From Prevotella amnii DSM 23384 = JCM 14753 (GTDB lineage Bacteria > Bacteroidota > Bacteroidia > Bacteroidales > Bacteroidaceae): DNA of 64,000 bases. This document shows, in pieces, positions 42,314 through 58,192 of the stretch. The stretch spans positions 1 to 64,000 of the forward strand of contig NZ_KB905272.1 of the NCBI RefSeq assembly GCF_000378745.1. The letters are read 5' to 3'. The position numbers and the translations under genes are program-made. The notes under the pieces are model-generated. The model saw nothing but the letters and a program-made list of their open reading frames with translations, was not told where the DNA came from and made no database searches. How positions within the stretch are numbered: position 1 is the first letter of the stretch; every line of letters begins with the position of its first letter.

Positions 42314-45268
42314 TTAGTTGTTAATAATTTTATTGTTTTCTCCAAAAAGCTGCTCAGTAGAAATATGCTGCACTGGAGCTATTTTCTCTAACGCTTTCAT
42401 ATCAAGCTCTTTTTCATTGCCAAGTATTATATATTTATAAGGCTTATTAGCTATATATTTCTTAGCAAAATCTACTATATCTTTTAATGAAAGTTTTGGC
42501 AACTCTTTATAAACTAACTCAGTAATATCTTTATCTAAACCAAAGCGTTTTGCATTAAGATATGAATTAAGAATATTAAATTTTGTTACCCTATGAGATG
42601 CTATTCTCTTCATTACACTCTGCTTTGCCACATCTACATTAACCTCACGTTCAGGAATATTGTTTAGCAAGTTATTAAACTCATTTATACAATCACTCAT
42701 CTTATCGTTTTGTGTTATTATATATGTATAAAACTTCTCACTATCCTCAGGACGCTCAGGAGATGTATAAGATGCACTTGCCGAATAAGCCAGCCCTCGT
42801 GCTTCACGCAATTCTTGGAAAACAATAGCATTCATACTACCACCAAAATACTCATTAAAAAGAGTAATTATGGGCAAATGTTGTGCTTGCCACTTAACAC
42901 CTTCGTTATGAATCTGCATCATATAAATATTCTTGGCATCATATGGAGCTAAGAGTACTTCGTTTTTTGTTGTAAGCTGCTGTATATAAGGCTTACCTGT
43001 TGGCACCTTTGCAAGATGCTTAACATCGGCAGATTGATAGCTTTTACTAATAACCTTATTAAGCTCTGTTATGGAAGAAGGACCATAATACATAATGGTA
43101 TGCTCATAGCTTTTTAGTTTTTTTATCTCAGAAAGCAACTCTTGAGGATTCATTTTACGTAACTCTTCCACAGAAATGCGGTTAGTAGTGCCATTATAAG
43201 CACCATAGGAAGCATAGGCAAATAGAGCATTAAAATTACTTCTTTGCGATTTCTTCTCATCTAAACGGTTCTTTTCTACTGATGATACATATTTATCGTA
43301 AGCCTGTTTATCTACCTTTGCATTATCCATGAGGTCATTGACAACTTTCAAAACCTCTGGCAAATTCTCGTTTAACCCATATAGCTTAATATAAGTACGA
43401 TCTCTTGTTACATATATACCATATTCACAAGCCAGCTTATATAACTTCTGCTTTATCTGCTCATTTGATAACTTATTTGTACCCAAATAGTCAATATAAT
43501 TGCTTGCATACCATAGCTTATTATTATTTTCGGTACCTATAGGCAACACAAAGGTAAGCTGAAACAAATCGTCTTGCGTATTCTTCTTATATAATAGAGG
43601 TAAACCTCTCTTTGTTTTTGTTATAGTAAGGTCTTTTTTATAATTAACAAAAACAGGTTTTATAGGGTCTACATGTATATTCTTTACCTCCTTTATAAAG
43701 TCGCTCTGCTTATCATTATTAGTAGGAATGGGCGTAATGGCTGGTTTTTCTACCTTTTTAATAGTATTATCCTCGCCTTGCTCCTTAAAGACAGTAACAA
43801 AGTTGCTCGTAAAAAAGCGATTAGCAAAACTAACTATTTCCGACTTAGTCATTTTAGCTATACGTTCTAAAGTGCTTGCTTTCTGCTCCCATGGGATATT
43901 ATTAATAAACGCATCTACGAAATAACTGCATCGGGTATCATTATTTTCTAAACTCTTATAAACATCTCGCTTAATATTATTGATAACAGAAGGTACAAGA
44001 TCGTCAGAGAAATCTCCCTTTTTAAGTTTTTCTATCTCAGAGAGCATTAATCTTCTTACATCTTTCAAAGATTGTCCTTTATTAGGCGATCCAAACACTT
44101 CAAAGCTACTATAATCATTAAGTGTAGATGCAGACGCCTGTGCATATTGCAATTTCATCTTACTATTAAGATTTAAATCGAAAATGCCTGCAGTACCATT
44201 GTTAAGCATCTCCTTAATAACCATTAAGGTATCGTTTTGTAAGCTCTTAGCGGCTTCAGCTCTCCAAGCCATTGCCACATAAGCAGCCTCTTTACCATAT
44301 ATAGTAGTATCTACTGGAGCTATCATCTTAGTAAGAGCAGGATACTGCGGTGCTCTCACCTCGCCATACCCCTTCCATGTGCCAAAATACTTTTCTATAG
44401 ATGCCACTGCCTTATCTGGATCTATATCACCTGCTAAGCAAATAGCTACATTATTAGGAACGTAATATTTCTTAAAATATTTTTTTATATTAGTTATAGA
44501 AGGGTTTTTAAGATGATCGCCTACACCTATTGTAGTCTGTGTTCCATAAGGATGATTAGGGAACAGCTTTGCCATTAGTGCTGTAAACATCTTACGACCA
44601 TCTTTTGCTAAACCAATATTATATTCCTCATATACAGCTTCAAGTTCGGTATGAAAACCACGTATCACCATGTTTTGAAAGCGATCTCCCTCTATCTTTG
44701 CCCATGTATCTAATTCATTAGAAGGAATATCCACATGATAACAAGTTATATCATTAGAGGTATAAGCATTAGTTCCTACACCTCCTATACCTGCCATCAT
44801 CTTGTCATATTCATTAGGAATATTATATTTAGCAGCAAGCTGCGATACAGAGTCTATCTCATGGTATAGCTTTTTACGCAAAATAGGATTGGTTACCTTA
44901 CGATATTCCTCGTACCTCCTCTCTATATCGTCTAATAAAGGTTTCTCTGCAGCATAGTTAGAAGTGCCATAATGAGTAGTGCCTTTAAACATAAGATGCT
45001 CTAAATAGTGAGCTAACCCTGTAGTTTCGGCAGGATCGTTACGACTACCAGTACGCACAGCAATATATGCTTGTACACGTGGTTTTTCCTTGTTTACACT
45101 AACAAACACTTTCAAGCCATTTTTTAAAGTGTAGATACGGCTTTGCATAGGGTCGCCCTTTACACTTTTATAACTATAGCTTTGCGCCTTTACGCTATAT
45201 GCAGTGCAAACAGCAACTACACCAATAGCAATTCCTTTTAAAAAGGATAAGAAATTTTTTTGCTTCAT
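42314..45268 (-). CDS. Periplasmic M16 zinc metallopeptidase, full-length duplicated
   Basis: This 984-aa protein has a signal sequence (ending AYSVKAQS), then the M16 inverted zinc motif H87-Y-L-E90-H91 (HYLEH) with the distal Glu in LEAVYEEYN. It has two M16 halves; the second keeps the ELREARGLAYSASASY segment but not the zinc motif, as expected for the inactive half. It degrades peptides in the periplasm. It is preceded by the DUF4954 gene with 20 bases between them. A second M16 protein is encoded at 55382. Confidence 0.92.
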   Translation of the reverse strand: MKQKNFLSFLKGIAIGVVAVCTAYSVKAQSYSYKSVKGDPMQSRIYTLKNGLKVFVSVNKEKPRVQAYIAVRTGSRNDPAETTGLAHYLEHLMFKGTTHYGTSNYAAEKPLLDDIERRYEEYRKVTNPILRKKLYHEIDSVSQLAAKYNIPNEYDKMMAGIGGVGTNAYTSNDITCYHVDIPSNELDTWAKIEGDRFQNMVIRGFHTELEAVYEEYNIGLAKDGRKMFTALMAKLFPNHPYGTQTTIGVGDHLKNPSITNIKKYFKKYYVPNNVAICLAGDIDPDKAVASIEKYFGTWKGYGEVRAPQYPALTKMIAPVDTTIYGKEAAYVAMAWRAEAAKSLQNDTLMVIKEMLNNGTAGIFDLNLNSKMKLQYAQASASTLNDYSSFEVFGSPNKGQSLKDVRRLMLSEIEKLKKGDFSDDLVPSVINNIKRDVYKSLENNDTRCSYFVDAFINNIPWEQKASTLERIAKMTKSEIVSFANRFFTSNFVTVFKEQGEDNTIKKVEKPAITPIPTNNDKQSDFIKEVKNIHVDPIKPVFVNYKKDLTITKTKRGLPLLYKKNTQDDLFQLTFVLPIGTENNNKLWYASNYIDYLGTNKLSNEQIKQKLYKLACEYGIYVTRDRTYIKLYGLNENLPEVLKVVNDLMDNAKVDKQAYDKYVSSVEKNRLDEKKSQRSNFNALFAYASYGAYNGTTNRISVEELRKMNPQELLSEIKKLKSYEHTIMYYGPSSITELNKVISKSYQSADVKHLAKVPTGKPYIQQLTTKNEVLLAPYDAKNIYMMQIHNEGVKWQAQHLPIITLFNEYFGGSMNAIVFQELREARGLAYSASASYTSPERPEDSEKFYTYIITQNDKMSDCINEFNNLLNNIPEREVNVDVAKQSVMKRIASHRVTKFNILNSYLNAKRFGLDKDITELVYKELPKLSLKDIVDFAKKYIANKPYKYIILGNEKELDMKALEKIAPVQHISTEQLFGENNKIINN

Positions 45269-45288
45269 ATAACTAATAATAAAGTAAA

Positions 45289-47151
45289 TTATTCTTCGTA
45301 ATCTGTCTCATGATCAAGACTTTTAACAAAGTCGTCAAACACCTCTCTATCGACATCTCCCATGTGAAACTCTTTTTCAGCATCTTTTTTTATCTCTGCT
45401 ATCCATGCTCGACGAGCGGTAATATAATCGGCTTTTATCTGTGCATCTACCTCCGCTGTTATCTCTTTTACTCCATAATAGTCTTGTATAAGCTTATAGG
45501 TCCATGCCCATTGATAAATGCGATAATTATTATTAATGTCTTCAAAACGATCTATCACATCTTGTATCGTCTCTAAAACACCTTCCTTTATATCTTCTAC
45601 TAAACGTATCTCCTCACTCTTTGGTAATAGCAATCCTGCAAGATCTCTCCATTCCCCTAATCCTTTGTTAGTAATAGGTTTACCAAAAAAGCCTAATTTA
45701 TGCGCTCTTTTCAAGACTGCTCCCATATATATGCGAAGAGCTATATCGTAATATTTTATACCTTTACGTAAGCTCGAAGCGTTAATAGTATATTCGTGAA
45801 AGTTATAACTCGACACATTATCACCACTTGCCTGCCTCAAATTTTCTAAAATAAACTTACCTCTTAATATCTCACCTACAGAGAAAGGCGACAACCAATC
45901 AAAATTAACAATACTCTTCTTATGAGCATTTTGCGGGCGCATATCTCTCTTAGACCACTTATGTATATCACGATAAAGCCCTACTGTGGTGATATTACGA
46001 CCAGGTACAAGAAACATTTTATCAGCCTCAGCTATAAGATATGAGAAAGGTAATGATGTGGTATTAGGGTGGTGCATCAGCTTTCCAAAACATACGGAGA
46101 ATGTGCCTATAGTGGCTGGCATCAATAGATAGCTACCGCTTGCCGTCTTCGACCCGCGCTCAAGTACTCCCCAGTGCATTGGTCCCATTTTATAAGCATG
46201 GTTAGAAAAGTTAGTCCCCGAGCCTGCATTATAAAAAGAAAACATACCACCTATGAGCAACGAGCTTTTATGATGTGATGCTGAAAAAGGACCACAAAAA
46301 GCAGCACAAGCCTCACCATTCGACATATATGAGTTAGCAAAAAACACGCTTTGTGATGCCGTAAACCCATTAGAAATATGGCAAGCCTCTCCCACAAAAC
46401 AATCTTGCATCTTAACACTATTAACTATGCTACTTCCTTCTGATATAATAGAGTTTTCACATATAACCCCTGTTCCTATATATACATTTGCCTTATCAGA
46501 ACTAAGAATAGTACAATCGCTCAAACGACTCGCTCCTGATATTTCACACTCATTTTGTATAACAGTATTAGTAATCTCACACGTATTAATTACTTTCACA
46601 TTATTACCCAAAGTTCCACGATCAGGATTAGTGCGGGTTATCTCTTCTTTTATTAAACGGCGAATAGCATTTTTAAGATCTTTATCCCCAAAATACTTTA
46701 CCATAAAGGCTGCAAACTGACTGTTAAGATCGTGGAAAAGAATAACATTACCATCGCCTACCTCATTGAGTACAGATATAAGATTACCCTCGCCAAAAGA
46801 AGCACCCTCTGTGGTTTCCATTACAGAAACATTAGATATAAGACAATCATCGCCTATAGTATAATTGTTAATATAATTTCCTACCTTCTCTATAAGACAA
46901 TCATTGCCTACGGTAACATTACATAATGTAGCATCATTAATGCCAGAATGCTTCACAAAGTCCTTCGCTATCTTAACATTCTTTTGAAATTTACCTAAAC
47001 GAATGTCCCCATAAAACATTACACGATGAAAATACTTTGGCAAAAATCCTTCTTCTGCCACAAGTACCCGTTGCCAGTCTTCTGCCCAACAGTTGTTATT
47101 TTCAAAAATTATAATCTCTTCTTGTGTCAGTGGTCTATAGCTCATATACAA
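45289..47151 (-). CDS. DUF4954 protein (left-handed beta-helix)
   Basis: This 620-aa protein matches the DUF4954 family of Bacteroidota. The N-terminal portion (YRPLTQEEIIIFENNNCWAEDW quoted in part as EEIIIFENNNCW) is followed by many hexapeptide-like turns (VTVGNDCLIEKVGN, TIGDDCLISNVS, ISGASRLSDCTILS). These form a left-handed parallel beta-helix like that of acyl- or nucleotidyl-transferases. A helical C-terminus follows. Catalytic role not known; it has been compared with UDP-sugar acyltransferases only by fold. It sits between hflX and the M16 peptidase gene with close spacing, so it is operonic. Confidence 0.82.
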   Translation of the reverse strand: MYMSYRPLTQEEIIIFENNNCWAEDWQRVLVAEEGFLPKYFHRVMFYGDIRLGKFQKNVKIAKDFVKHSGINDATLCNVTVGNDCLIEKVGNYINNYTIGDDCLISNVSVMETTEGASFGEGNLISVLNEVGDGNVILFHDLNSQFAAFMVKYFGDKDLKNAIRRLIKEEITRTNPDRGTLGNNVKVINTCEITNTVIQNECEISGASRLSDCTILSSDKANVYIGTGVICENSIISEGSSIVNSVKMQDCFVGEACHISNGFTASQSVFFANSYMSNGEACAAFCGPFSASHHKSSLLIGGMFSFYNAGSGTNFSNHAYKMGPMHWGVLERGSKTASGSYLLMPATIGTFSVCFGKLMHHPNTTSLPFSYLIAEADKMFLVPGRNITTVGLYRDIHKWSKRDMRPQNAHKKSIVNFDWLSPFSVGEILRGKFILENLRQASGDNVSSYNFHEYTINASSLRKGIKYYDIALRIYMGAVLKRAHKLGFFGKPITNKGLGEWRDLAGLLLPKSEEIRLVEDIKEGVLETIQDVIDRFEDINNNYRIYQWAWTYKLIQDYYGVKEITAEVDAQIKADYITARRAWIAEIKKDAEKEFHMGDVDREVFDDFVKSLDHETDYEE

Positions 47152-47193
47152 AGATTTTGAAATTGATAATCATTTTAAATATACCTATCTTAC

Positions 47194-48450
47194 TTATTCT
47201 AAAGTATCTTCTAAAGTGTAAAGAAAATCATTATAAGGATATTTCTGCACATGCATTTCACGTACCGTCTTATATAACACTTCTCTAAACTCTACTATGT
47301 TCTGTTTCTCTCGAGCTGATACAAACAAACAGTTACCAGATACTTTTGCCATCCAAGTACGCTTTAAGTCATCAAGAGTAAGATTATTTTTAGTTTCTGG
47401 CGTTAGGTCGTCGGCATCTTTGTCCACCCATTTATAATTGTCTATTTTGTTAAAAACCAATATAGACGGTTTGTCAGCACAGCCAAGATCGGCTAATGTT
47501 TTATTAACCACATTTATCTGCTCTTCAAAATCAGAATGGGATATATCTACAACATGAAGTAACAAGTCAGCCTCACGCACCTCATCGAGGGTAGACTTAA
47601 AAGAATCAACAAGATCTGTGGGGAGCTTTCTAATAAAACCTACCGTATCGGCTAATAAAAAAGGTAAATTATCTATCACTACTTTACGCACGGTAGTATC
47701 AAGGGTAGCAAAGAGCTTATTCTCGGCAAACACCTCGCTCTTAGATAAAAGATTCATTATAGTAGACTTCCCTACATTTGTGTACCCTACCAAAGCCACC
47801 CTTATCATACGCCCACGATTCTTACGCTGTGTCTTTTTCTGCTTATCTATCTCTAATAAACGCTCTTTCAACAAAGACATTCTATTAAGAATTATTCGAC
47901 GATCCATCTCAAGCTGTGTTTCACCAGGACCACGAAGACCTACTGAACCTTTACCCCCACCAGATCCAGAACCACCTCCTTGACGCTCCAAATGGGTCCA
48001 CAGACGCTGCAAACGTGGAAGCATATATCGATATTGTGCTAATTCTACCTGAGTCTTAGCATTAGCCGTTTGAGCACGCATAGCAAAAATATCTAAAATA
48101 AGCGATGTCCTATCAAGGATTTTAACTTCTAACATCTGCTCTATATTACGCATCTGCTTTGCCGATAACTCATCATCAAAAATGACCATTCCTACAGGCT
48201 CTTCATCTTCTTCTCTCTGCTTTATGAAGCTGCGTATTTCGTCTAACTTTCCCTTACCAACATAAGTAATAGCACTTGGCCCATTTACTCGCTGCGTAAA
48301 ACGTTTTATAGTAACAGCTCCTGCAGTATCAGCTAAAAACTCCAGCTCGTCAAGATACTCTTTAGTTTTAGCCTCATCTTGCTGCTGAGTTATTAAACCT
48401 ACAAGGATAGCACTCTCAGTTTTTACTTCGGATATAACAAATTCCTTCAT
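47194..48450 (-). CDS. hflX: Ribosome-splitting GTPase HflX
   Basis: HflX is a GTPase that separates stalled or stressed ribosomes. The 418-aa protein has the N-terminal nucleotide-binding-like domain, the HflX motif GLRGPGETQLE (171-181), then the G domain with GYTNVGKST (222-230), DTVGFI and NKID. The linker ERQGGGSGSGGGKGSVG is typical. It is first in the run hflX-DUF4954-M16-fumarase, with a promoter box at 48531-48538. Confidence 0.95.
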   Translation of the reverse strand: MKEFVISEVKTESAILVGLITQQQDEAKTKEYLDELEFLADTAGAVTIKRFTQRVNGPSAITYVGKGKLDEIRSFIKQREEDEEPVGMVIFDDELSAKQMRNIEQMLEVKILDRTSLILDIFAMRAQTANAKTQVELAQYRYMLPRLQRLWTHLERQGGGSGSGGGKGSVGLRGPGETQLEMDRRIILNRMSLLKERLLEIDKQKKTQRKNRGRMIRVALVGYTNVGKSTIMNLLSKSEVFAENKLFATLDTTVRKVVIDNLPFLLADTVGFIRKLPTDLVDSFKSTLDEVREADLLLHVVDISHSDFEEQINVVNKTLADLGCADKPSILVFNKIDNYKWVDKDADDLTPETKNNLTLDDLKRTWMAKVSGNCLFVSAREKQNIVEFREVLYKTVREMHVQKYPYNDFLYTLEDTLE

Positions 48451-48728
48451 TTAGTATAGTTTCTTTTCATATAAGCACGCTCTAATATATATATGCACAC
48501 AGAGCCCACCACCTACTATTTTGCTTACTGCAAAAGTACATTTTGTTTTTGTAAAACCAATACTTAAAAATATAAAAATATATAATAATAATCTTTATAA
48601 CAAACAAAAAATTTTACCCATTATTTGGATAAAGAATAATTTTATCCAACTTTCTGTCCTAACAAAAGAATATATCACAAAAATAAAAACAAAAAAACAA
48701 GGATTTTAATAATTATAAAGACCCATCC
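48451..48728. other. Intergenic gap upstream of hflX
   Basis: The gap holds the hflX -7 box and AT-rich sequence. No gene is seen before the IS30 remnant at 48729. Confidence 0.6.
48531..48538 (-). promoter_or_regulatory. -7 box of hflX
   Basis: Minus-strand TACTTTTG, 80 bases upstream of the start. Confidence 0.55.
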
Positions 48729-48887
48729 GTAGAGTCAACCAGCAAGTGCAAAATTACAAAACGTTTTTGAAGAACTCGCATTTTGGTGTAGAAAAGTTTA
48801 ATTTTTCTCTCGGTCTTTCGTTCAGTTTCTTTTGCATCGACATAATTCTCTTGTCTGTATAATGTTCAAACGATTCCTTTTTCGATA
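48729..48887 (-). mobile_element. IS30-family element remnant (3' end of transposase)
   Basis: These 159 bases align without gaps to 51241-51399, the 3' end of the IS30-family element on the other side of the EcoRI-like genes, with six mismatches by my count. It encodes the last part of the transposase on the minus strand, ending in a C-terminus like CEFFKNVL, and breaks off abruptly at 48887. It is in the same orientation as the larger copy. Confidence 0.88.
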
Positions 48888-48964
48888 TTATTGTTGATAT
48901 ACTCGCCATAATTCGTCCTCGGATACATTACCGCATTAACCCTACGGCTAAAAAAAGTGAGCAA

Positions 48965-49255
48965 GTGTTGGCAATTAAATTTGTACAATGGGACGTTCCC
49001 CCTTTGGAGAGCCTATGCAACAGCAAAGTATATCTCCTGCGTATGAAACTCTATCGTGGCAAGTGTATGAGCCGTGAGGACGAGTTGTTGAGAGCTTTGC
49101 TCGAAAAAAAGAATTGGCTATGTGCATCGGTGAACTCAAACACCTATTTCCGCACAGCCGTTCCCCTACGAGGCTATCGCTTTGACTTTATACGTAAACA
49201 GCAACAGAGCTTCTCCAACAACACCCCCCATTATTTATATAATGACACAGACTGA
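48965..49255 (+). CDS. Probable fragment of a mobile-element hypothetical protein
   Basis: The 96-codon frame starts with GTG, but the reading frame is open without a stop upstream into the IS remnant, so the true 5' end is probably lost. The peptide includes VQWDVPPLESLCNSKVYLLR and VNSNTYFRTAVPLRGYRFDF. I recall similar short proteins in Bacteroidales conjugative elements but know no function. Its 3' end overlaps the end of the convergent methyltransferase gene by 25 bases, which suggests a recombination junction. Base composition is less AT-biased than the flanks. Confidence 0.5.
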   Translation: MLAIKFVQWDVPPLESLCNSKVYLLRMKLYRGKCMSREDELLRALLEKKNWLCASVNSNTYFRTAVPLRGYRFDFIRKQQQSFSNNTPHYLYNDTD

Positions 49256-50259
49256 TATTTTTTTACAGACTCCTTATTTTTAGGCATAAGTGTCTTGCGT
49301 CTTATTATAATCCTAAAATATGGACACTTTCCATTGATTGATAAATCTTTATCATCGTCTCCTTTTCGGAACTTTATAATTTCGAATTGACGAGGATTAA
49401 ACTTATGGAGAAAAGTTATTGGTACTCCCATGTAACCGCTATAATCTTGCGGAATGTCTTGTGTTCTATTAATATTAATACCGTCATAATTGTCATATAT
49501 AGGATACTCTTGCTCATATCCGTAATAACTTTTTGTTAGCTTAATATCTTCATGACGTATGAAATTATCTAAATTCGTAAGCCATAGACAATTATTAGGA
49601 GAGATAATCCTATTACCAAACTCGTCTATCTTCGTTTCTGTCCCATATAACTTATAATACTCTGGTACAATAAATCCCGAAATACCTCTACCAAGATTAA
49701 CTCCGAGCCATGCCTTATTGTCTTGAATAAGTCTGAAGATTTCCTTGTATGTAATTGCATTTATATTTCCAATAATCAGGAATTGCTTATCGTGTCGAAT
49801 TAATTGTGCGACAAATTCACGGAACAACGAAAAAGGAGGATTAGTAACAACTATATCAGATTGTTTCAGCAAAGCTATACTTTCAGGACTACGAAAGTCG
49901 CCATCACCCTTGAAATATACGATATTGGCAGCTTTTGGATTAGCATCGGGAAGTTCTATTCCTGTATATTCAAAGAAATAACCATGCTCATTTTCTTTTG
50001 TGTCAAACAAGTTCATTTTTTGTTCCTTATAAAAAGCTGCAATGACTTTTTTAAGTCCTAACTCTTTAAAATGAGAAACAAAGTACCTAAAAAAGTTACT
50101 ACTACGAGGGTCATCACAATTACAAAATACGACTTTACCCTTGAAATGATTTTTGTAATATTGCAATTCTCTCTCTATATCGACAAGCTGTGTATAGAAT
50201 TCATCGTTCTTCAACTTTTTCGCCTTTTGCAGTAAATCATTACTTGCTTTCCTTACCAT
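49231..50259 (-). CDS. EcoRI-type adenine-specific DNA methyltransferase
   Basis: This 342-aa protein resembles M.EcoRI (326 aa as I recall it), including CNCDDPR (46-52), GDGDFRS, the catalytic IVVTNPPFSLFRE with NPPF at 140-143, then GRGISGFIVPEYYKLYGTE, ISPNNCLWLTNLD and MGVPITFLHKFNP. It should transfer methyl to adenine in GAATTC to protect the host from the companion nuclease. It lies 23 bases downstream of the endonuclease gene on the same strand, the same order as in the EcoRI plasmid. Its C-terminus is about 16 residues longer than M.EcoRI, possibly because the stop codon was changed at the island edge. Confidence 0.94.
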   Translation of the reverse strand: MVRKASNDLLQKAKKLKNDEFYTQLVDIERELQYYKNHFKGKVVFCNCDDPRSSNFFRYFVSHFKELGLKKVIAAFYKEQKMNLFDTKENEHGYFFEYTGIELPDANPKAANIVYFKGDGDFRSPESIALLKQSDIVVTNPPFSLFREFVAQLIRHDKQFLIIGNINAITYKEIFRLIQDNKAWLGVNLGRGISGFIVPEYYKLYGTETKIDEFGNRIISPNNCLWLTNLDNFIRHEDIKLTKSYYGYEQEYPIYDNYDGININRTQDIPQDYSGYMGVPITFLHKFNPRQFEIIKFRKGDDDKDLSINGKCPYFRIIIRRKTLMPKNKESVKKYQSVSLYK

Positions 50260-50282
50260 ACGCCAATATCTATTTCGTTTTT

Positions 50283-51116
50283 TTACTTTTTAGTTAACTG
50301 GGAAAATAAATCGCGCCCCAACATTTGCAGAGATGTCTTTGAGATATCAAGCATAATCTCAAGCATCTTATCGACTTTCCATCTTTCACCATTGCCCTGT
50401 GTATAAATGGAAGCTGCTTGAAGCATGATAGTTTTTTCATTATGTTTGACAAACTTATTCTCACACAGATTCTTATTGATGGGCATACCATAATTTGCAG
50501 CCGTCAGTCTATCCAATCTATTAAGTATACCCGAATTATATTCGAGTACTACAACTCTTCCATCAGGGCGCTTTACGGAAATAGTTTCTGTAAGGAAGTT
50601 AGAGCCTTCCAAGAAAAGCACATAAGGGAAATGTGACTCTGCCAGCATCAGATTTGCTATTTCAGATATATTCTTATGCGACCTCTCTATAGCATTACCC
50701 GCAGCCATAAGATCTTGATCATTTTTTGCTCCAACAAGTTTACCAGCCTTAATGTTTTCAATATCTTTTCCTTGATGTTTTGCCTCTGAAACCAACACAA
50801 TCCTCCACTCTCCATTATCGTCTTTCACTTCAACTATTCCTCCATCAGGGATAATATTTGAATTAGAAACGAAAAGAGTCTTTCCTAATTCTGGGTCAAT
50901 CTTCTTTAAGGCCTTGTTGATTTCTTCCTTCTTAATACTCGTCCTATATTGAAACTCCAATTGTGGATATTTTTTCTGAAGCTGTTTCAGTGCAAGATGT
51001 GAAACTTCCCCGACAGTCATGTCATGTTTCTTCGCTTCTGACCCGAAAATACCAACAACTCCCTTTGAATCTTTTTGTTGAATTGTAAGTCTGTTGGACT
51101 GGTTTTTCTTCGACAT
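50283..51116 (-). CDS. EcoRI-type type II restriction endonuclease
   Basis: This 277-aa protein is the same length as EcoRI. Its key residues fall at the same numbers: catalytic D91 in IPDGG, E111 and K113 in SEAKHQG, the recognition segment MAAGNA (137-142), R145, R200 and R203 in NRLDRLTAANYG. Long blocks are as I remember EcoRI, for example GNAIERSHKNISEIAN and FPYVLFLEGSNFL. It should cut G^AATTC as a homodimer. It is followed by the cognate methyltransferase. A promoter is present at 51164-51195. The unit lies in an island with IS30-family sequences at both sides, which suggests horizontal transfer. Specificity is predicted, not shown. Confidence 0.95.
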   Translation of the reverse strand: MSKKNQSNRLTIQQKDSKGVVGIFGSEAKKHDMTVGEVSHLALKQLQKKYPQLEFQYRTSIKKEEINKALKKIDPELGKTLFVSNSNIIPDGGIVEVKDDNGEWRIVLVSEAKHQGKDIENIKAGKLVGAKNDQDLMAAGNAIERSHKNISEIANLMLAESHFPYVLFLEGSNFLTETISVKRPDGRVVVLEYNSGILNRLDRLTAANYGMPINKNLCENKFVKHNEKTIMLQAASIYTQGNGERWKVDKMLEIMLDISKTSLQMLGRDLFSQLTKK

Positions 51117-51163
51117 AATTATTATTTATTTGTAATCTTCCTTAATGAGGATATTTGTTTTTG

Positions 51164-51195
51164 CAAATATAATCATTTATGACAAGAAATTCAAA
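51164..51195 (-). promoter_or_regulatory. Promoter of the EcoRI-like R-M genes (-7 and -33)
   Basis: On the minus strand TTTG (51192-51195), 20 bp, then TATATTTG (51164-51171), 48 bases before the nuclease start. The promoter is of Bacteroidota type, so the unit is adapted to this host. Confidence 0.7.
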
Positions 51196-51240
51196 TAAGA
51201 TTGGATTAAACTCCTCTCCAAAATTTCCAATTATTAAAGC

Positions 51241-52204
51241 GTAGAATCAATCAGCAAGTGCAAAATTACAAAACGTGTTTGAAGAACTCGCTTTTTGGTG
51301 TAGAAAAGTTTAATTTTTCTCTCGGTCTTTCGTTCAGTTTCTTTTGTATCGACATAATTCTCTTGTCTGTATAATGTTCAAACGATTCCTTTTTCGGTAT
51401 GTATTGTCTTATTAGTTTATTTGTATTCTCAATAGCTCCCTTTTGCCAAGAATAATATGGATTAGCGAAGTACACGGACACGCCTAAGAACTTGGTAATG
51501 TCCTTATGTGCTGCAAATTCAGGTCCGTTGTCTGTTGTAATGGTCTTCAGAATGTCCATGTATGGTAGCAGCAGTTTCCTAACTACCTTTGCCAGAGGCT
51601 TTGACTGCTTTTCAAATGGCAGTTTCTGCATAAGTAGCATATTGGTGGATTTCTCTACCAGTGTGAGTATGGCATGCTGGTCAGGGTCTACGATTAAGTC
51701 CATCTCAAAATCTCCGAATCTCTTCCCGTCAATTTCCTTACTTCTTTCATGGATACTCAATCTGTCTTTAATTGGAAGATGTCTGCCCTTGGGACGATGC
51801 CTGTATTTCATCTTATGCCTTGTGTGTTTGGCAAGTTCCCCTGTTGTATCATTATGGATGATATTATAAATGGATTGGTGGGACACCTTTATCCCCTCAC
51901 TCTTGCACAGATAACCTGATATTTGTCGTGGAGACCATTGATCATTGGTGATATATTCCTTAATCCTCCAGACTAATTCGTCGGAGAGCCAGGCGTTCTT
52001 TACCGTTCTCTTTCTGCGCTGCATAGCCATATAGTGCGCCTTTGCCCAAATATACTTTCCCGATGACGTACTGTTGCGTTTGATTTCACGTGAGAGTGTT
52101 GACTAACTGATGCCGACGATTGCGGCAATCTCTTTTCTCTCTGTTTTCTTTTAGAGTAAGGCAAAAATTTGCGACCTTTGCTCCGAGATTAATTGATGAT
52201 ACAT
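51241..52204 (-). mobile_element. IS30-family insertion element (inactivated)
   Basis: It contains the whole transposase frame. The left part is repeated at 48729-48887. I could not define the terminal inverted repeats with confidence. It borders the EcoRI-like R-M genes. Confidence 0.75.
51266..52204 (-). pseudogene. IS30-family transposase with two in-frame stop codons
   Basis: Read from the ATG at 52204 in one frame of 313 codons, the N-terminal part runs MYHQLISEQRSQIFALL, then TAA, KKTERKEIAAIVGIS, then TAG, STLSREIKRN, and onward. Both stops replace positions expected to be Gln (CAA to TAA, CAG to TAG). They fall in the helix-turn-helix DNA-binding region. The downstream part (from 52030) is intact, with the DDE core FGDFEMDLI, TTDNGPEF and GAIENTNKLIRQYIPK. 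IS30 transposases move by a DDE mechanism. As it stands, no full-length protein can be made without readthrough, so the element is probably immobile. Confidence 0.88.
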
Positions 52205-52285
52205 AAACAATACAAAGTTAGTTAATCTTTGGGAGACAGAGGTCTCCCTTTTTTATTTGTATTGCTGGTTGTTTCTTTTTCATCG

Positions 52286-52339
52286 CCGAGAGATGCAGAC
52301 GTTCTCGAAGCATAGCGAGAGGTTGTCTGCATCTCTCGG
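52286..52339. repeat. Strong 15-bp-stem hairpin
   Basis: Perfect arms ccgagagatgcagac (52286-52300) and 52325-52339, with an inner helper stem (tctcg/cgaga type). GC content is well above the surroundings and no T-run follows. Function unknown. Confidence 0.7.
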
Positions 52340-52464
52340 TGAGGACTACTCTTTTATTGCATTTCGTTTTGTAACTTGCAATCTTTTTCCATAATAAACA
52401 TAACTCTTTTATAATGAAAATATAAATCAACTGCAAGAAAAATAAATTATTTTTAGTGCATTTT

Positions 52465-52493
52465 TAACCTATTTTTGGTGTAAAAATAGGTTA
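52465..52493. repeat. Dispersed intergenic hairpin, copy 3
   Basis: Perfect 12-bp stem taacctattttt (52465-52476) with aaaaataggtta (52482-52493), flanks as in copy 1. Confidence 0.75.
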
Positions 52494-52643
52494 TTTTTAC
52501 ATCAGATAAACGCCTTTTTACCTCTAATAAGATAATCTTTTTCCACCTTCCACCTCATTTTTTATAGCTTTATTACTCACCTTCTTATGCACACAAAACA
52601 AATAACAAGCAAAACCATACCTTAATATTACCTCTGCTTAGAC

Positions 52644-52683
52644 ATAAAAAAGCGAGATTACCTCATTTAAAGGCAATCCCGCT
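52644..52683 (-). terminator. Terminator of the diaminopimelate dehydrogenase gene
   Basis: A stem of 13 positions with three mismatches (52651-52663 with 52671-52683; agcg.gatt.cct pattern), followed on the minus strand by a U-run. It lies 147 bases past the stop. Confidence 0.6.
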
Positions 52684-52829
52684 CTTAATAACTTTATGCT
52701 ATATTAAGTCTTATAAAATAGCAATAGCTCTATATGTTTGTAAAACAAAACTCAAAAGTAATAAAATAATAAAATATGCTTTTAATAAATTATTATAGCA
52801 AGCCTTGCTCAACAAACTCTTATCCCCCT

Positions 52830-53729
52830 TTAGACTAATGTACCTATAACCTCTTCACGACTCTGTGGAAGATAATCTATTACAGGTATCTCTGGCATGG
52901 TGTAACAGCCTGGCTCTAATCTCATAGCAGCACGAGCACAGTTGACAAGAATCTGTGCTGTAAGAGCAGGGTTATTAATACTCATGTTAAACTCAAAACG
53001 CTGGTTTTGTGTCTTACCACTTACACCCTTACGTACCATGTGCACGCCATGCCCCATATCCTTTACATCGTCTACATTAGATACTGCAAAAACATGTGTT
53101 TCATCGCTGGCAAAATAAGGATCTGCCTTAATTAGCTTTGTTACCTCTTCTATAGTAGCACCCTCTTCGAGCTCTACATAAACCATACGGCGATGAATAC
53201 CCTCACCCAAAGGAATAGTTACAGAAAGAGCTTCTTTTACTCCCTTCTTGCTACGGACACATACAGAATGACCCATAGACATACCCGGACCAAAATTAGT
53301 ATAAGATAACCCCTTAGGTGCTAACCCCTCAAGAAGAACACGGACTACAGAGTCAGAACCTGGATCCCAGCCTGCAGCAATAATACTTACCTTACCAGCC
53401 TTTTTACAATGTTCCATTTGCGCTGTACGATAGTCTAATATGCCTGTGTGAATATCGTATGAATCGACAGTATGAATGCCTTGTGCAACAATCTTCTCTG
53501 AATATTCTGGACAACTACGTGTAGGTGTTGCTAAAATAGCTACATCTACGTCCTTAAGCTTAGCAATATCATCTACTACTTCGTATGGAGTAAGCTCTAA
53601 AGGTTTGTCCTTATCGCCCTGACGACGTACTATACCTGCTATCTCAAAATCTTTTGCTTCTTCTAAAGCCTCTACGCTAAAGCGTCCAATGTTGCCATAA
53701 CCAACAACAGCTGCTCTAATTTTTTTCAT
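52830..53729 (-). CDS. ddh: meso-diaminopimelate D-dehydrogenase
   Basis: I chose the ATG at 53729 (299 aa; MKKIRAAVVGYGNIG) over the ORF start at 53825, since the N-terminal extension (MYFLEQKCCYTI onward) would place coding sequence across the promoter box at 53773-53780. The enzyme makes meso-diaminopimelate in one step from tetrahydrodipicolinate, supplying lysine and peptidoglycan. It has the Rossmann GYGNIG (residues 10-15), VDSYDIH, ISIIAAGWDPGSDSV-type central segment and GPGMSMGHS. Length matches Ddh. Confidence 0.94.
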   Translation of the reverse strand: MKKIRAAVVGYGNIGRFSVEALEEAKDFEIAGIVRRQGDKDKPLELTPYEVVDDIAKLKDVDVAILATPTRSCPEYSEKIVAQGIHTVDSYDIHTGILDYRTAQMEHCKKAGKVSIIAAGWDPGSDSVVRVLLEGLAPKGLSYTNFGPGMSMGHSVCVRSKKGVKEALSVTIPLGEGIHRRMVYVELEEGATIEEVTKLIKADPYFASDETHVFAVSNVDDVKDMGHGVHMVRKGVSGKTQNQRFEFNMSINNPALTAQILVNCARAAMRLEPGCYTMPEIPVIDYLPQSREEVIGTLV

Positions 53730-53772
53730 AATACCTATTATTTTATCTATAAAACTTATATATTTTTCGCTG

Positions 53773-53780
53773 CAAAAGTA
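53773..53780 (-). promoter_or_regulatory. -7 box of ddh
   Basis: Minus-strand TACTTTTG, 43 bases upstream of the ATG at 53729; supports the shorter start. Confidence 0.65.
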
Positions 53781-53960
53781 CTTCAAAAAAATAGTATAAC
53801 AACACTTTTGTTCTAAAAAATACACAAAAACAACTCATAAAAAAAATAAAAAACATCAAAAAACTCACTACTACTCCCCCTTTATTATAACAGCTCAAAA
53901 TAAGACAAAACAAACAGAAACAATTGGAATATTTCTTTTTATAAGAATTAACTAAAAAAC

Positions 53961-53992
53961 TTTGGCGTTCACGATGTTTATTTATACCTTTG
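53961..53992 (+). promoter_or_regulatory. Promoter of the superoxide reductase gene (-33 and -7)
   Basis: TTTG (53961-53964), 20 bp, TACCTTTG (53985-53992), 29 bases before the ATG at 54022. It overlaps the longer ORF start at 53962, which argues for the later ATG. Confidence 0.78.
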
Positions 53993-54021
53993 CAAAAAAT
54001 AAATCTAAAAACAAAAACATT

Positions 54022-54390
54022 ATGGTAAAGAAAACAGAAATATATAAATGCGCAGGTAGTAATACTTTTGTAGAGGTGTTATTAGATTCAGAAAAAGATT
54101 TATGTGGCTTAGAGCATGTAGTAGAAAACACTACTGACGCTGCTAAAGAAAAGCACGTTCCTGTTGTAGAAAAAATAGATGGCGGCTATAGAGTAACCGT
54201 TGGCTCTGTAGACCACCCTATGACAGAGGCACATTATATCCAGTGGATCGAATTAATCACAGAAGACAATGAAGTGCTTCGCAAATATCTTACTCCATCA
54301 GATAAGCCTGTTGCAGAGTTTAAAACAGAAGCTAAAAATGTTTATGCTCGTGAATACTGCAACCTACATGGTTTATGGAGATCTAAATAA
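54022..54390 (+). CDS. dfx: Superoxide reductase (desulfoferrodoxin family, centre I lost)
   Basis: I chose the ATG at 54022 (122 aa). The enzyme reduces superoxide to hydrogen peroxide, protecting an anaerobe against oxygen. Centre II ligands are present: E43 and H45 in EKHVP, H65 in DHPM, H71 in EAHYI, and C113 and H116 in YCNLHG. The N-terminal desulforedoxin-like domain keeps only two of the four cysteines (C10, C28), so the rubredoxin-type Fe centre is probably gone. That makes it a class III-type, one-iron enzyme. It is monocistronic with its own strong terminator. Confidence 0.92.
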   Translation: MVKKTEIYKCAGSNTFVEVLLDSEKDLCGLEHVVENTTDAAKEKHVPVVEKIDGGYRVTVGSVDHPMTEAHYIQWIELITEDNEVLRKYLTPSDKPVAEFKTEAKNVYAREYCNLHGLWRSK

Positions 54391-54409
54391 CACATTATAA
54401 TTACTACAT

Positions 54410-54450
54410 AAAAGCCACTTACTTTCTTAAAGATAGTAAGTGGCTTTTAT
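54410..54450 (+). terminator. Terminator of the superoxide reductase gene
   Basis: A 14-bp perfect stem (54410-54423 with 54435-54448; core agccacttact) ending in TTTT. It could also serve the convergent ChaN gene. Confidence 0.88.
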
Positions 54451-54485
54451 CGTTATCCTGCCCAATAACACCTTTACAAACATAT

Positions 54486-55364
54486 TTAATACGATCTGCT
54501 CATGTCTTGAGGTATTACTATATAGCAATCAGCCAAATTTTTATAAGCATCGTCTATTTTAGAAATATCTTCTTGCTTCACAGCCATTATAACAAAAGAT
54601 GTCAGTGATGGCTTATATTCTTTAAGATAAGTAATAATGCCATCATGATTAGAGGTGTGATAGCTTCCATTATAATGCACCATATAATTGTTGCCTATAT
54701 TTTTCGCTATATTCCATGCCATAGTAGCATCTTTCAATGCTTGTGCCATTTGCATTTGCTTAGGATTATCATTACCACCATGCAAAGCAGACATTACTGA
54801 AAAAGCCTCATTATTCTTACCTTCCATAGTAAAGGTTATAGGTAGTGGTGGTAACAACCTCTTAGCTTCTTCAGTTAAGCTATCTAAATAATCAAGCCCA
54901 CGATTCTTAACCACATTAGCATATCTACGTGGCACATTAGTAGCAATAAAAGGGCGTTTATATTCTTTGGCAAACATCACTAAAGGCTCATAATCTGTTT
55001 CATAATTAGGCCATAAACGCATCTCGTTATTAAACTGATCATAACTTATAACCCCCTTCAGGTATTCATTAAAGATAAGTTGGTTATCAGCTTCAAACAT
55101 TTCTGCTCCCAGCAACAAGCTATCCTTATGCTTTGCATATAAGGCTTCAGTTATTTTTAATTCTAACCAGTGCGTAACAGGACAGTTATGCATCTCACCT
55201 ATAAAAACTACCTTATATTTAGATGCCTCTTCTATCATAGCATCAAAAGTAATAGCTTTGCCATTATTATTATAAAGGGCAAAAGCACGTAAGTCTTTTT
55301 TAGCATTTATTGATAACGATGATAGCAAGAGAAATAGTAATAATAATTTTTCTTTCATAATCAT
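54486..55364 (-). CDS. ChaN-family heme-associated protein
   Basis: This 292-aa protein has a signal sequence (LLLLFLLLSSLSINA). The ChaN/DUF399 core is clear: VVFIGEMHNCPVTHWLEL, then ADNQLIFNEYLKGVISYDQF (quoted as FNEYLKGVISYD), RLWPNYETDYEPLVMFA, and a last segment NNYMVHYNGSYHTSNHDGI. ChaN proteins bind heme as stacked dimers and are linked to iron uptake. It is the last gene of the SusC-SusD-lipoprotein-M16-ChaN operon, 17 bases after the M16 stop, which suggests handling of heme released from host proteins (inferred). Confidence 0.87.
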   Translation of the reverse strand: MIMKEKLLLLFLLLSSLSINAKKDLRAFALYNNNGKAITFDAMIEEASKYKVVFIGEMHNCPVTHWLELKITEALYAKHKDSLLLGAEMFEADNQLIFNEYLKGVISYDQFNNEMRLWPNYETDYEPLVMFAKEYKRPFIATNVPRRYANVVKNRGLDYLDSLTEEAKRLLPPLPITFTMEGKNNEAFSVMSALHGGNDNPKQMQMAQALKDATMAWNIAKNIGNNYMVHYNGSYHTSNHDGIITYLKEYKPSLTSFVIMAVKQEDISKIDDAYKNLADCYIVIPQDMSRSY

Positions 55365-55381
55365 ACTCCTTTTTTATAATA

Positions 55382-58192
55382 TCATAATCCTATTATAATA
55401 AATTTATCTGTGTTAAGATATTTCACAAAGCCATCTTGTATGTTTTTTGGTGTTATACTATCTAAAATAGTATCATAACTATTAAAATCGGATAACATCT
55501 CGCAATTTTTTATCTTATTTACCATATCCATACGCCATGCTGCTGTGGCATCGTCTGACAACACTCTTGCTTTTGTTGCCTTAAACGACAATTGCAATTG
55601 TTGAAGTTCTGCTCTGCTTATTGGTTTAGTTTGTAAAGACCGTATTATCTTTATAAGAAGTTTTTGAGCCCTTTCCACGTTACCCCTATCTAATGTAAGC
55701 ATAATATCAAAGTAATAATTATGCCCATCTTGCCCATGATATAACAAATCAGTGAATGGCGAATAAGTTATATTCTCACGTTGTCGCAACACTTCTAACA
55801 AACGATTTTGTATTATATCGCGCATCAGCTTTAATACAAGAGTTGTTTTTAAATTAGGATAAAAATTACCTGCCAACATAAAATGTAAGTCAAGTTGTTG
55901 CTCGTTAGCACTACTTACCTTATACCTATAAGGAGCCTTGGGCATAGTACGCCATACCGTCGGAGGCGTATACTGCTGCTTTTGTTGCCATTTACTAAAA
56001 GAGCCTACCGCGGCTTCTTTCATCTGCTGCAAATCATAATCGCCTGTTAGCACAATAGTAAGGTTATGCGTATTATTATATAATGACTTAAAATAATCTA
56101 CCATCTTATATATATCCAGCTGCTTTATATCCTCTATGGTTCTCTTTCTCCGTAGCATAGAAGGCGCATCTCCCATTATAGAGTCGCGTATATTTATTAT
56201 CTTTCTGTTCTTGTCATGTTCTAATTGTTCTTGTAGAGGGGTGGTAATTCCAAAAGAAGTCAAATCTTCTTTTACAGTTTCATCAAATTCCTTTTTATTA
56301 ATCTCAGGAGCAGTAAGCTTTTCTTTTATTAAATTAAAAAGATTCTGTGCTTTATTCACTGGTGCTACACCTATAAATCCATGCCAATATGAAGAAATAT
56401 TAGTATCTAAAGATATACCATTCTGCACCAAATAATTAAACAAAGTATCCCTATTAACCTTTTCTATACCACCCATTTCAACAAAAGCTGCAGTACTCTC
56501 ATATTGATAATATACAGAGTCGGGTAAATCTGCTGTCCCTCCTCTACCAAGTCCTTCTATAAAGAAGCTCTTAGAATCATCTCGGGTAGGACGCAACAAG
56601 ATGCGGATTCCGTTATTAAGCAATATATCATATACCCCAATATTAGCATAACTCCTTTCTGATTTTATTTCTTTACTGTCAAATGTTGAAACTACACCTA
56701 AACATGGTGGCGTTTGCATCAACGATTCTACTGGCTCCTTACACGACTTATAAGTATAACACAACAGATCATTACTTAAGCCTTTACGCCAAGCTTTTTT
56801 AATATTCTCAAGCGTAAGCCCACTATCCTGTGGAGCTGTATAGCAAGCTAATACTGTTTTTTTAGAAGCTTGCAACCACTCTTTTAACATTCGTTGTGCA
56901 GAACGTATAGTACAAAATGCGAGGTACTTCTTTACAGATTCTATATCTCTAAGTCTTGTCGGATATATATCATGCATAATAATATAATCAACAAAGTCGT
57001 CACACCACTGTTCCGATGTCTTATCCACATCTTCTATCTTTATAGAAGCTAACCTATCTTTTAAAGAAGCTGCAAATTCCCTATGATCAAAACCATTACG
57101 AATAATAGTGTTCCATTCATTAGTAAAACTCGTTATATCATGTAGTAACGCAGCATTATCAGCCTCTTTAAATACTACACTAAAGAAATTCTTATCTCCA
57201 AGATACCATGCATCAGAACAATCTGCTCTTATGTTTCTATCCTTCAGTCTGTTATTAAGCAGATCAACAACTATCTTGCTAAGATGTTTATCTACACTGT
57301 TTTTAATAGTTCTCTCTACAATTCCCTCATGTGGTATGATCAATTCCAGCTTATTACATTTCCCTAAATCAGATAAAGAGAAACGCATATTCCACCCTTT
57401 CTTATAAGAAACAGAATAAGTAGGCAGCTTTATATTATTAGTATTAATAGCACTTACAAAAGTTTCTTTTAATATACGCTCCACCTTTCTTGCATTAATA
57501 TCCCCCACTACCACAACTGTAGCAAAACGTGGTTGATACCATTTTGAGTAAAACTTACGTAACATAGTCTTAGATACCGCCTTTATGTCGTCTATTGTAC
57601 CCAATGGCATTCTTCGACTATAACGATTATCCCCTATCTTTAGCTTATAAAAATCGTCATTAGTATCATATTGCTTTAACTCTTCTAAAATTATACCACG
57701 TTCTTTCTCTACATAAGCAGGATCAAAAGTAAGCCCATCAAGCCACTCTCGCATCATTCCTAACAACTGATGTATATCTTTAGTAGAATCAAACCTAATT
57801 GGAACAGAAAGGCTATATATAGTTTTATCAAATCCGGTATAGGCATTAATATCCCGTCCGAACTTCATTCCTTTCTTTTCAAGCATATGTACCATATTAA
57901 AACCACGATAACTCTTAGATCCAGCAAAAGCCATATGCTCAATAAAATGGGCAGTACCTCCTTGATTCTCTGTTTGCTGTAAAGCTCCTATTTGCATCAC
58001 CAATCTAAGTTCAGTAACATTTTGTGGATGTATGTTACGCTTTATAATATAAGAAAGTCCGTTAGCAAGCCTCCCTTTTATAGTTCCCTTCGGAATTTTA
58101 ATGGCAGTATGAACACCTGCCATAGATAATAACAAACTGGCAAAAAATATAATAACTACACAGAAAAATCTTATTGTCTTAATAAATCTCAT
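55382..58192 (-). CDS. Secreted M16 zinc metallopeptidase of the SusCD operon
   Basis: This 936-aa protein has a signal sequence (FFCVVIIFFASLLLSMAG), a zinc motif H82-F-I-E85-H86 (AHFIEH) and downstream Glu in ERGIILEEL. A second, inactive M16 half includes LLEVLRQRENITYSPF. It is diverged from the other M16 protein at 42314. Its start overlaps the stop of the upstream lipoprotein gene by a few bases, suggesting translational coupling. It probably cleaves proteins whose fragments or cofactors enter through the SusC-type receptor. Confidence 0.9.
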   Translation of the reverse strand: MRFIKTIRFFCVVIIFFASLLLSMAGVHTAIKIPKGTIKGRLANGLSYIIKRNIHPQNVTELRLVMQIGALQQTENQGGTAHFIEHMAFAGSKSYRGFNMVHMLEKKGMKFGRDINAYTGFDKTIYSLSVPIRFDSTKDIHQLLGMMREWLDGLTFDPAYVEKERGIILEELKQYDTNDDFYKLKIGDNRYSRRMPLGTIDDIKAVSKTMLRKFYSKWYQPRFATVVVVGDINARKVERILKETFVSAINTNNIKLPTYSVSYKKGWNMRFSLSDLGKCNKLELIIPHEGIVERTIKNSVDKHLSKIVVDLLNNRLKDRNIRADCSDAWYLGDKNFFSVVFKEADNAALLHDITSFTNEWNTIIRNGFDHREFAASLKDRLASIKIEDVDKTSEQWCDDFVDYIIMHDIYPTRLRDIESVKKYLAFCTIRSAQRMLKEWLQASKKTVLACYTAPQDSGLTLENIKKAWRKGLSNDLLCYTYKSCKEPVESLMQTPPCLGVVSTFDSKEIKSERSYANIGVYDILLNNGIRILLRPTRDDSKSFFIEGLGRGGTADLPDSVYYQYESTAAFVEMGGIEKVNRDTLFNYLVQNGISLDTNISSYWHGFIGVAPVNKAQNLFNLIKEKLTAPEINKKEFDETVKEDLTSFGITTPLQEQLEHDKNRKIINIRDSIMGDAPSMLRRKRTIEDIKQLDIYKMVDYFKSLYNNTHNLTIVLTGDYDLQQMKEAAVGSFSKWQQKQQYTPPTVWRTMPKAPYRYKVSSANEQQLDLHFMLAGNFYPNLKTTLVLKLMRDIIQNRLLEVLRQRENITYSPFTDLLYHGQDGHNYYFDIMLTLDRGNVERAQKLLIKIIRSLQTKPISRAELQQLQLSFKATKARVLSDDATAAWRMDMVNKIKNCEMLSDFNSYDTILDSITPKNIQDGFVKYLNTDKFIIIGL

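What the first reader, a model, noticed from the sequence alone, without database searches (positions are those of the whole stretch)
48729..52204. EcoRI-type restriction-modification island bordered by IS30 sequences in a Bacteroidales chromosome
The 277-aa endonuclease has its catalytic (D91, E111, K113) and recognition residues (MAAGNA 137-142, R145, R200, R203) at the same positions as EcoRI, and the methyltransferase resembles M.EcoRI throughout. The island is flanked on both sides by IS30-family sequence in the same orientation and is preceded by a native-type promoter, which points to acquisition and domestication. A complete EcoRI isoschizomer this close to the enterobacterial plasmid enzyme in a distant phylum is striking.
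Basis: partly seen in the sequence, partly recalled or inferred. Interest (0 to 1): 0.8.

Follow-up and report, generated by a model that had tools for sequence, protein, structure and literature searches.

The report
Ordinary EcoRI-type restriction-modification gene pair
This is an intact-looking pair of genes for a DNA-cutting enzyme of the EcoRI type and its protecting methylase; the pair is real, but close relatives are spread over many bacterial groups, so it is ordinary.

Summary
A Bacteroidota-type promoter match precedes R. The 'IS30 on both sides' picture is weaker than stated: on the left only a 167-bp IS30 3' end, then a ~260-bp fragment of a gene that in a relative precedes a PcfK-like gene; on the right a ~1-kb IS30 copy whose transposase has two in-frame stops. 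No clean empty site was found. 'Striking' is not supported: one scan confirmed 158 related loci in GTDB species genomes; the 80 kept are 73-82% identical and 51 of them are Bacteroidota. A predicted Prevotella EcoRI-type system is already in print. GAATTC is no more depleted than in a relative without the system. Most likely a horizontally acquired type II R-M system acting on GAATTC; specificity and activity are inferred. New member of a known kind; low interest.

The parts
50283..51116 (-). EcoRI-type type II restriction endonuclease, 277 aa
   Evidence: Pfam PF02963 480.8 bits; PDB 1ckq 452.9 bits; 213/277 identical to E. coli EcoRI; catalytic and recognition residues identical
49231..50259 (-). 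M.EcoRI-type adenine methyltransferase, 342 aa, 23 bp after the endonuclease gene
   Evidence: Pfam PF13651 418.2 bits; 215 of 326 aligned residues identical to M.EcoRI, NPPF motif kept
51164..51195 (-). Bacteroidota-type promoter match TTTG-N20-TATATTTG upstream of the endonuclease (consensus recalled)
   Evidence: 11 matches in window, 3.29 expected by chance
51240..52290 (-). IS30-family copy with degenerate transposase (two in-frame stops near the N-terminus); ends approximate
   Evidence: NF033563 218.5 bits; copies in the same genome; stops
48728..48894 (-). 167-bp 3'-terminal fragment of the same IS30 family
   Evidence: 96% identical to the right-hand copy; alignment
48926..49188 (+). 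internal fragment of a conserved ORF of unknown family that in a relative (L171) is followed by a PcfK-like gene; probable conjugative-element debris
   Evidence: genus hits, best 83-84% identity; alignment and ORFs; no Pfam family for the ORF, PcfK 211.2 bits for the next gene in L171

Best explanation
A horizontally acquired type II restriction-modification system of the EcoRI kind. The endonuclease would cut unmethylated GAATTC in incoming DNA, and the downstream methyltransferase would protect host GAATTC sites by N6-adenine methylation. The two genes probably form one transcription unit, read from the promoter match at 51164-51195. The pair sits among worn mobile-element debris (IS30 remnants and a fragment of a probable conjugative-element gene), which suggests arrival with such elements. 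Shown: gene identity, order, intact frames, catalytic and recognition residues, sporadic distribution. Inferred: specificity, activity, operon transcription, route of entry. The confidence given is for identity and acquisition; that the system is active I put at about 0.75.
For: Full-length family matches. The residues named as catalytic or recognition are identical to EcoRI. 79 of 80 related genome loci carry an M.EcoRI homologue directly after R on the same strand, starting within about 60 bp, as here and in the E. coli plasmid. Sporadic in the genus: 6 of 299 genomes over the cut-off, own included. The tree mixes phyla. IS30 and probable conjugative-element fragments flank the pair.
Against: No activity data. 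A published, more distant Prevotella intermedia EcoRI-type system (M 51% identical to M.EcoRI) gave no GAATTC methylation (PMC5608340, passages, section 14 part 1 of 2). GAATTC depletion is not greater than in a relative without the system. The right IS30 transposase is broken, so no working composite transposon is present. No clean empty site was found. In the tree the phylum labels are more clustered than in shuffles (Bacteroidota 12 changes, shuffled mean 18.2, 1 of 500 as low), so part of the spread may follow descent.
Confidence: 0.9

Rival explanations
1. The pair is a silent relic: the frames are intact but the system is not expressed or not active. (This overlaps with the best explanation, whose confidence is for identity and acquisition.)
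For: A more distant Prevotella EcoRI-type system showed no GAATTC methylation (PMC5608340); the surrounding mobile elements are broken; no special GAATTC depletion.
Against: Both frames are complete, the named active-site and recognition residues are kept, and a promoter match is present.
Confidence: 0.2
2. The pair moves as an IS30 composite transposon formed by two same-direction IS30 copies.
For: IS30-family sequence lies on both sides in the same orientation.
Against: The left copy is 167 bp only; the right transposase has two in-frame stops, the C63 copy has a broken frame and the C5 copy is truncated; a non-IS fragment lies between the left piece and M. Target-site duplications were not tested.
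Confidence: 0.08

Closest known systems
EcoRI / M.EcoRI of E. coli plasmids (NZ_CP103650.1, NZ_CP068038.1)
   Same: Same two families, same order (R then M, same strand, short gap), same R length, identical catalytic and recognition residues; R 76.9% identical, M 215 of 326 aligned (66%)
   Different: On an 89.6-kb contig with conserved chromosomal genes rather than a small plasmid; M carries 16 extra C-terminal residues, also covered by the alignment in some relatives (L010, L034, L060)
EcoRI-type pairs in other Bacteroidota (for example L013 Tannerellaceae MAG, L010 Bacteroidetes MAG)
   Same: R 79.7% and 80.1% identical, M 74.1% and 71.6% identical to the window's M, same gene order
   Different: Found in other organisms; their flanks were not compared with this locus in detail
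Pin25611FORF1345P of Prevotella intermedia (PMC5608340)
   Same: Predicted GAATTC type II system with an M.EcoRI-like methylase, absent from another strain of the species
   Different: M only 51% identical to M.EcoRI, REase downstream of M, no GAATTC methylation detected

Membership tests
EcoRI type II restriction endonuclease | full-length sequence match to the family | tested here: met
   PF02963 480.8 bits, 257 of 257 positions; PDB 1ckq, query residues 2-277
EcoRI type II restriction endonuclease | catalytic D91, E111, K113 and recognition residues M137-A142, R145, R200, R203 | tested here: met
EcoRI type II restriction endonuclease | cleaves G^AATTC | not testable with these tools
   needs an assay
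M.EcoRI adenine methyltransferase | full-length family match and NPPF motif, gene adjacent to R | tested here: met
   PF13651 418.2 bits; NPPF in the alignment; adjacency
M.EcoRI adenine methyltransferase | N6-adenine methylation of GAATTC | not testable with these tools
   needs methylation calling or EcoRI digestion of host DNA
IS30 composite transposon | two IS copies flanking the cargo, at least one with a working transposase | tested here: not met
   left piece 167 bp only; right transposase with two in-frame stops
IS30 composite transposon | target-site duplication at the outer ends | not tested
   outer ends are only approximately known

The most novel reading that the evidence does not exclude
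EcoRI systems may be chiefly residents of Bacteroidota that spread on conjugative and insertion elements, with the enterobacterial plasmid enzyme one late offshoot; this locus would then be one snapshot of that traffic. In the quick tree the E. coli enzyme groups with Shimwellia (99) and, more loosely, other Pseudomonadota rows inside a larger set with many Bacteroidota. But 41 of 82 inner branches are weakly supported, the root rests on one very long row, and the sample was chosen by similarity to the window protein, which favours Bacteroidota.
Probability: 0.2. Interest if true: 0.3.

Novelty: new member of a known kind. Interest (0 to 1): 0.12.

Why it matters
It matters little beyond annotation: if active, it predicts that this organism's DNA resists EcoRI and that DNA introduced into it should lack or pre-methylate GAATTC. 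It also corrects the idea that close EcoRI homologues are rare outside enterobacteria.

Tried and rejected
GAATTC avoidance as a sign of long residence: 30 observed, 57.9 expected, ratio 0.52, rank 14 of 64 palindromes in 464 kb of the own genome (window plus 20 stretches); 29 observed, 73.7 expected, 0.39, rank 6 of 64 in 400 kb of G010 (no EcoRI hit over the cut-off); 32 observed, 45.5 expected, 0.70, rank 28 of 64 in 320 kb of G034 (with one). No support, so rejected.

Empty site: in the stretches fetched (17.7-19 kb) from G010, G026, G003 and G016 the hflX operon on the left is conserved, but none of the window's right-hand genes of 100 aa or more matched there. In the stretches around the right-hand ddh gene of G017, G066 and G069 only ddh matched, besides weak hits (27-32% identity) of one large protein in two of them. 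The upstream region shared with G010 ends at about window 48588. So no clean empty site could be read.

Structured RNA at the island: no Rfam match at gathering score in 44000-58000. A first residue table was off by one and was redone. Of 91 R rows, four shorter than 190 aa (L009, L014, L019, L077) were dropped from the tree, leaving 87; of the 80 genome loci, 75 have an R open frame of 270 aa or more. Only the best 80 of the 158 loci confirmed were returned and used. Literature searches: ('EcoRI homolog', 'horizontal', 'restriction-modification') gave 0 papers. Only PMC5608340 was opened (passages, section 14 part 1 of 2); the other papers were seen in search listings only.

Full report
What is there. 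Two adjacent genes on the minus strand, 50283-51116 (277 aa) and 49231-50259 (342 aa), are complete open frames. The first is a full-length EcoRI endonuclease (Pfam PF02963, 480.8 bits; PDB 1ckq, 452.9 bits over residues 2-277). The second is a full-length EcoRI-type adenine methyltransferase (PF13651, 418.2 bits). Pairwise alignment gives 213 of 277 identical residues for R and 215 of 326 aligned for M against the E. coli plasmid pair in NZ_CP103650.1.

Surroundings. Upstream of R a match to the Bacteroidota promoter consensus (consensus recalled) lies at 51164-51195 on the minus strand, ending 47 bp before the start codon. The pattern occurs 11 times in the window against 3.29 expected, so one such match near a gene is suggestive, not proof. 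A looser form of the pattern was found upstream of R in 14 of 91 rows, the window included; four of the 91 had under 60 bases of upstream sequence. To the right is an IS30-family copy (about 51240-52290; NF033563 218.5 bits) whose transposase frame has two in-frame stops. Another copy in the genome (C63) has a broken frame and a third (C5) is truncated. To the left is only the 3'-terminal 167 bp of the same element, and between it and M lies 48926-49188, an internal fragment of an ORF found elsewhere in the genus (19 of 150 genomes have some match to the 346-bp query, own genome included, two of them only short and weak; the best are 83-84% identical). That ORF has no Pfam family; in the relative locus L171 the next gene is PcfK-like (211.2 bits), which I recall as a gene of conjugative elements. 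In one of the seven relatives looked at, L176, a different ORF follows, by eye. So the island lies in mobile-element debris rather than between two working IS copies. GC content does not set it apart (0.32-0.38 over 49250-51250).

Distribution. One scan of GTDB species genomes with R confirmed 158 related loci; the best 80 were returned, at 73-82% identity. By NCBI phylum these 80 are Bacteroidota 51, Pseudomonadota 8, Cyanobacteriota 4, unassigned 4, Bacillota 2, Ignavibacteriota 2 and nine further phyla with one each. In 79 of the 80 an M.EcoRI homologue follows R directly on the same strand; in eight of these the best match covers M only in part, six at the end of the locus (L011, L022, L032, L040, L054, L058) and two not (L012, L077). 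In plasmids 19 records match, in phages 1, in viral contigs 4 loci. In the genus, 6 of 299 genomes, own included, have a match over the family cut-off. A quick tree of 87 rows gives the window protein no close partner (highest identity 82%, L007); the smallest well-supported set that holds it has 26 rows (Bacteroidota 19, Bacillota 1, no group 6; 98), and the E. coli enzyme lies outside that set beside Shimwellia. Of 82 inner branches 14 are well supported and 41 are open. The Bacteroidota label needs 12 changes on the tree (at least 6 forced by well-supported branches) against a shuffled mean of 18.2, with 1 of 500 shuffles as low. So there is both mixing of phyla, which points to horizontal transfer, and some clustering by phylum. 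Many rows are bins, where a contig can be misplaced.

Mechanism. By homology the methyltransferase would methylate GAATTC and the nuclease would cut unmodified GAATTC. This is inference from families and residues; nothing here measures it. A more distant Prevotella intermedia system predicted for GAATTC showed no such methylation (PMC5608340; passages, Type II section part 1 of 2), so silence is a live alternative. GAATTC counts do not help: 0.52 of expectation here, 0.39 in a relative with no EcoRI hit over the cut-off, 0.70 in one with such a hit.

Organism. The neighbours, the size of the genus and the relatives fit a Prevotella-like Bacteroidales, but this is my inference and was not tested against a named record.

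Verdict. It is a new member of a known and widespread kind.

Noticed in passing
L024:61-8275 (Bacteroidales bacterium MAG Tb.RUG.192, JAEEKL010000059.1): Alone among the 80 loci, no M.EcoRI homologue was found in the 10.8 kb held. The EcoRI-type nuclease and two N6_N4 methylases lie between matches to the PADLOC models SngA and SngB on one side and SngC on the other (212.5, 630.2 and 937.3 bits): an EcoRI-type restriction unit inside what looks like a Shango-type defence operon (the link of Sng models to Shango is recalled).
   Followed up: partly
L049, L070, L074 (both methylases), L064 and L181 (first methylase only): The same extra N6_N4 methylase(s) as in L024 lie upstream of the EcoRI-type nuclease (70-83% identity for the first, 74-75% for the second); L049, L064, L070 and L074 also have M.EcoRI downstream, so some clusters hold two or three methylases.
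   Followed up: partly
window 52283-52350: An inverted repeat beside the IS30 copy, seen by eye in the sequence; not analysed.
   Followed up: no
L009, L014, L019: R frames broken by early stops in two Microcystis genomes and one Roseburia MAG (open frame 85, 48 and 63 aa).
   Followed up: no
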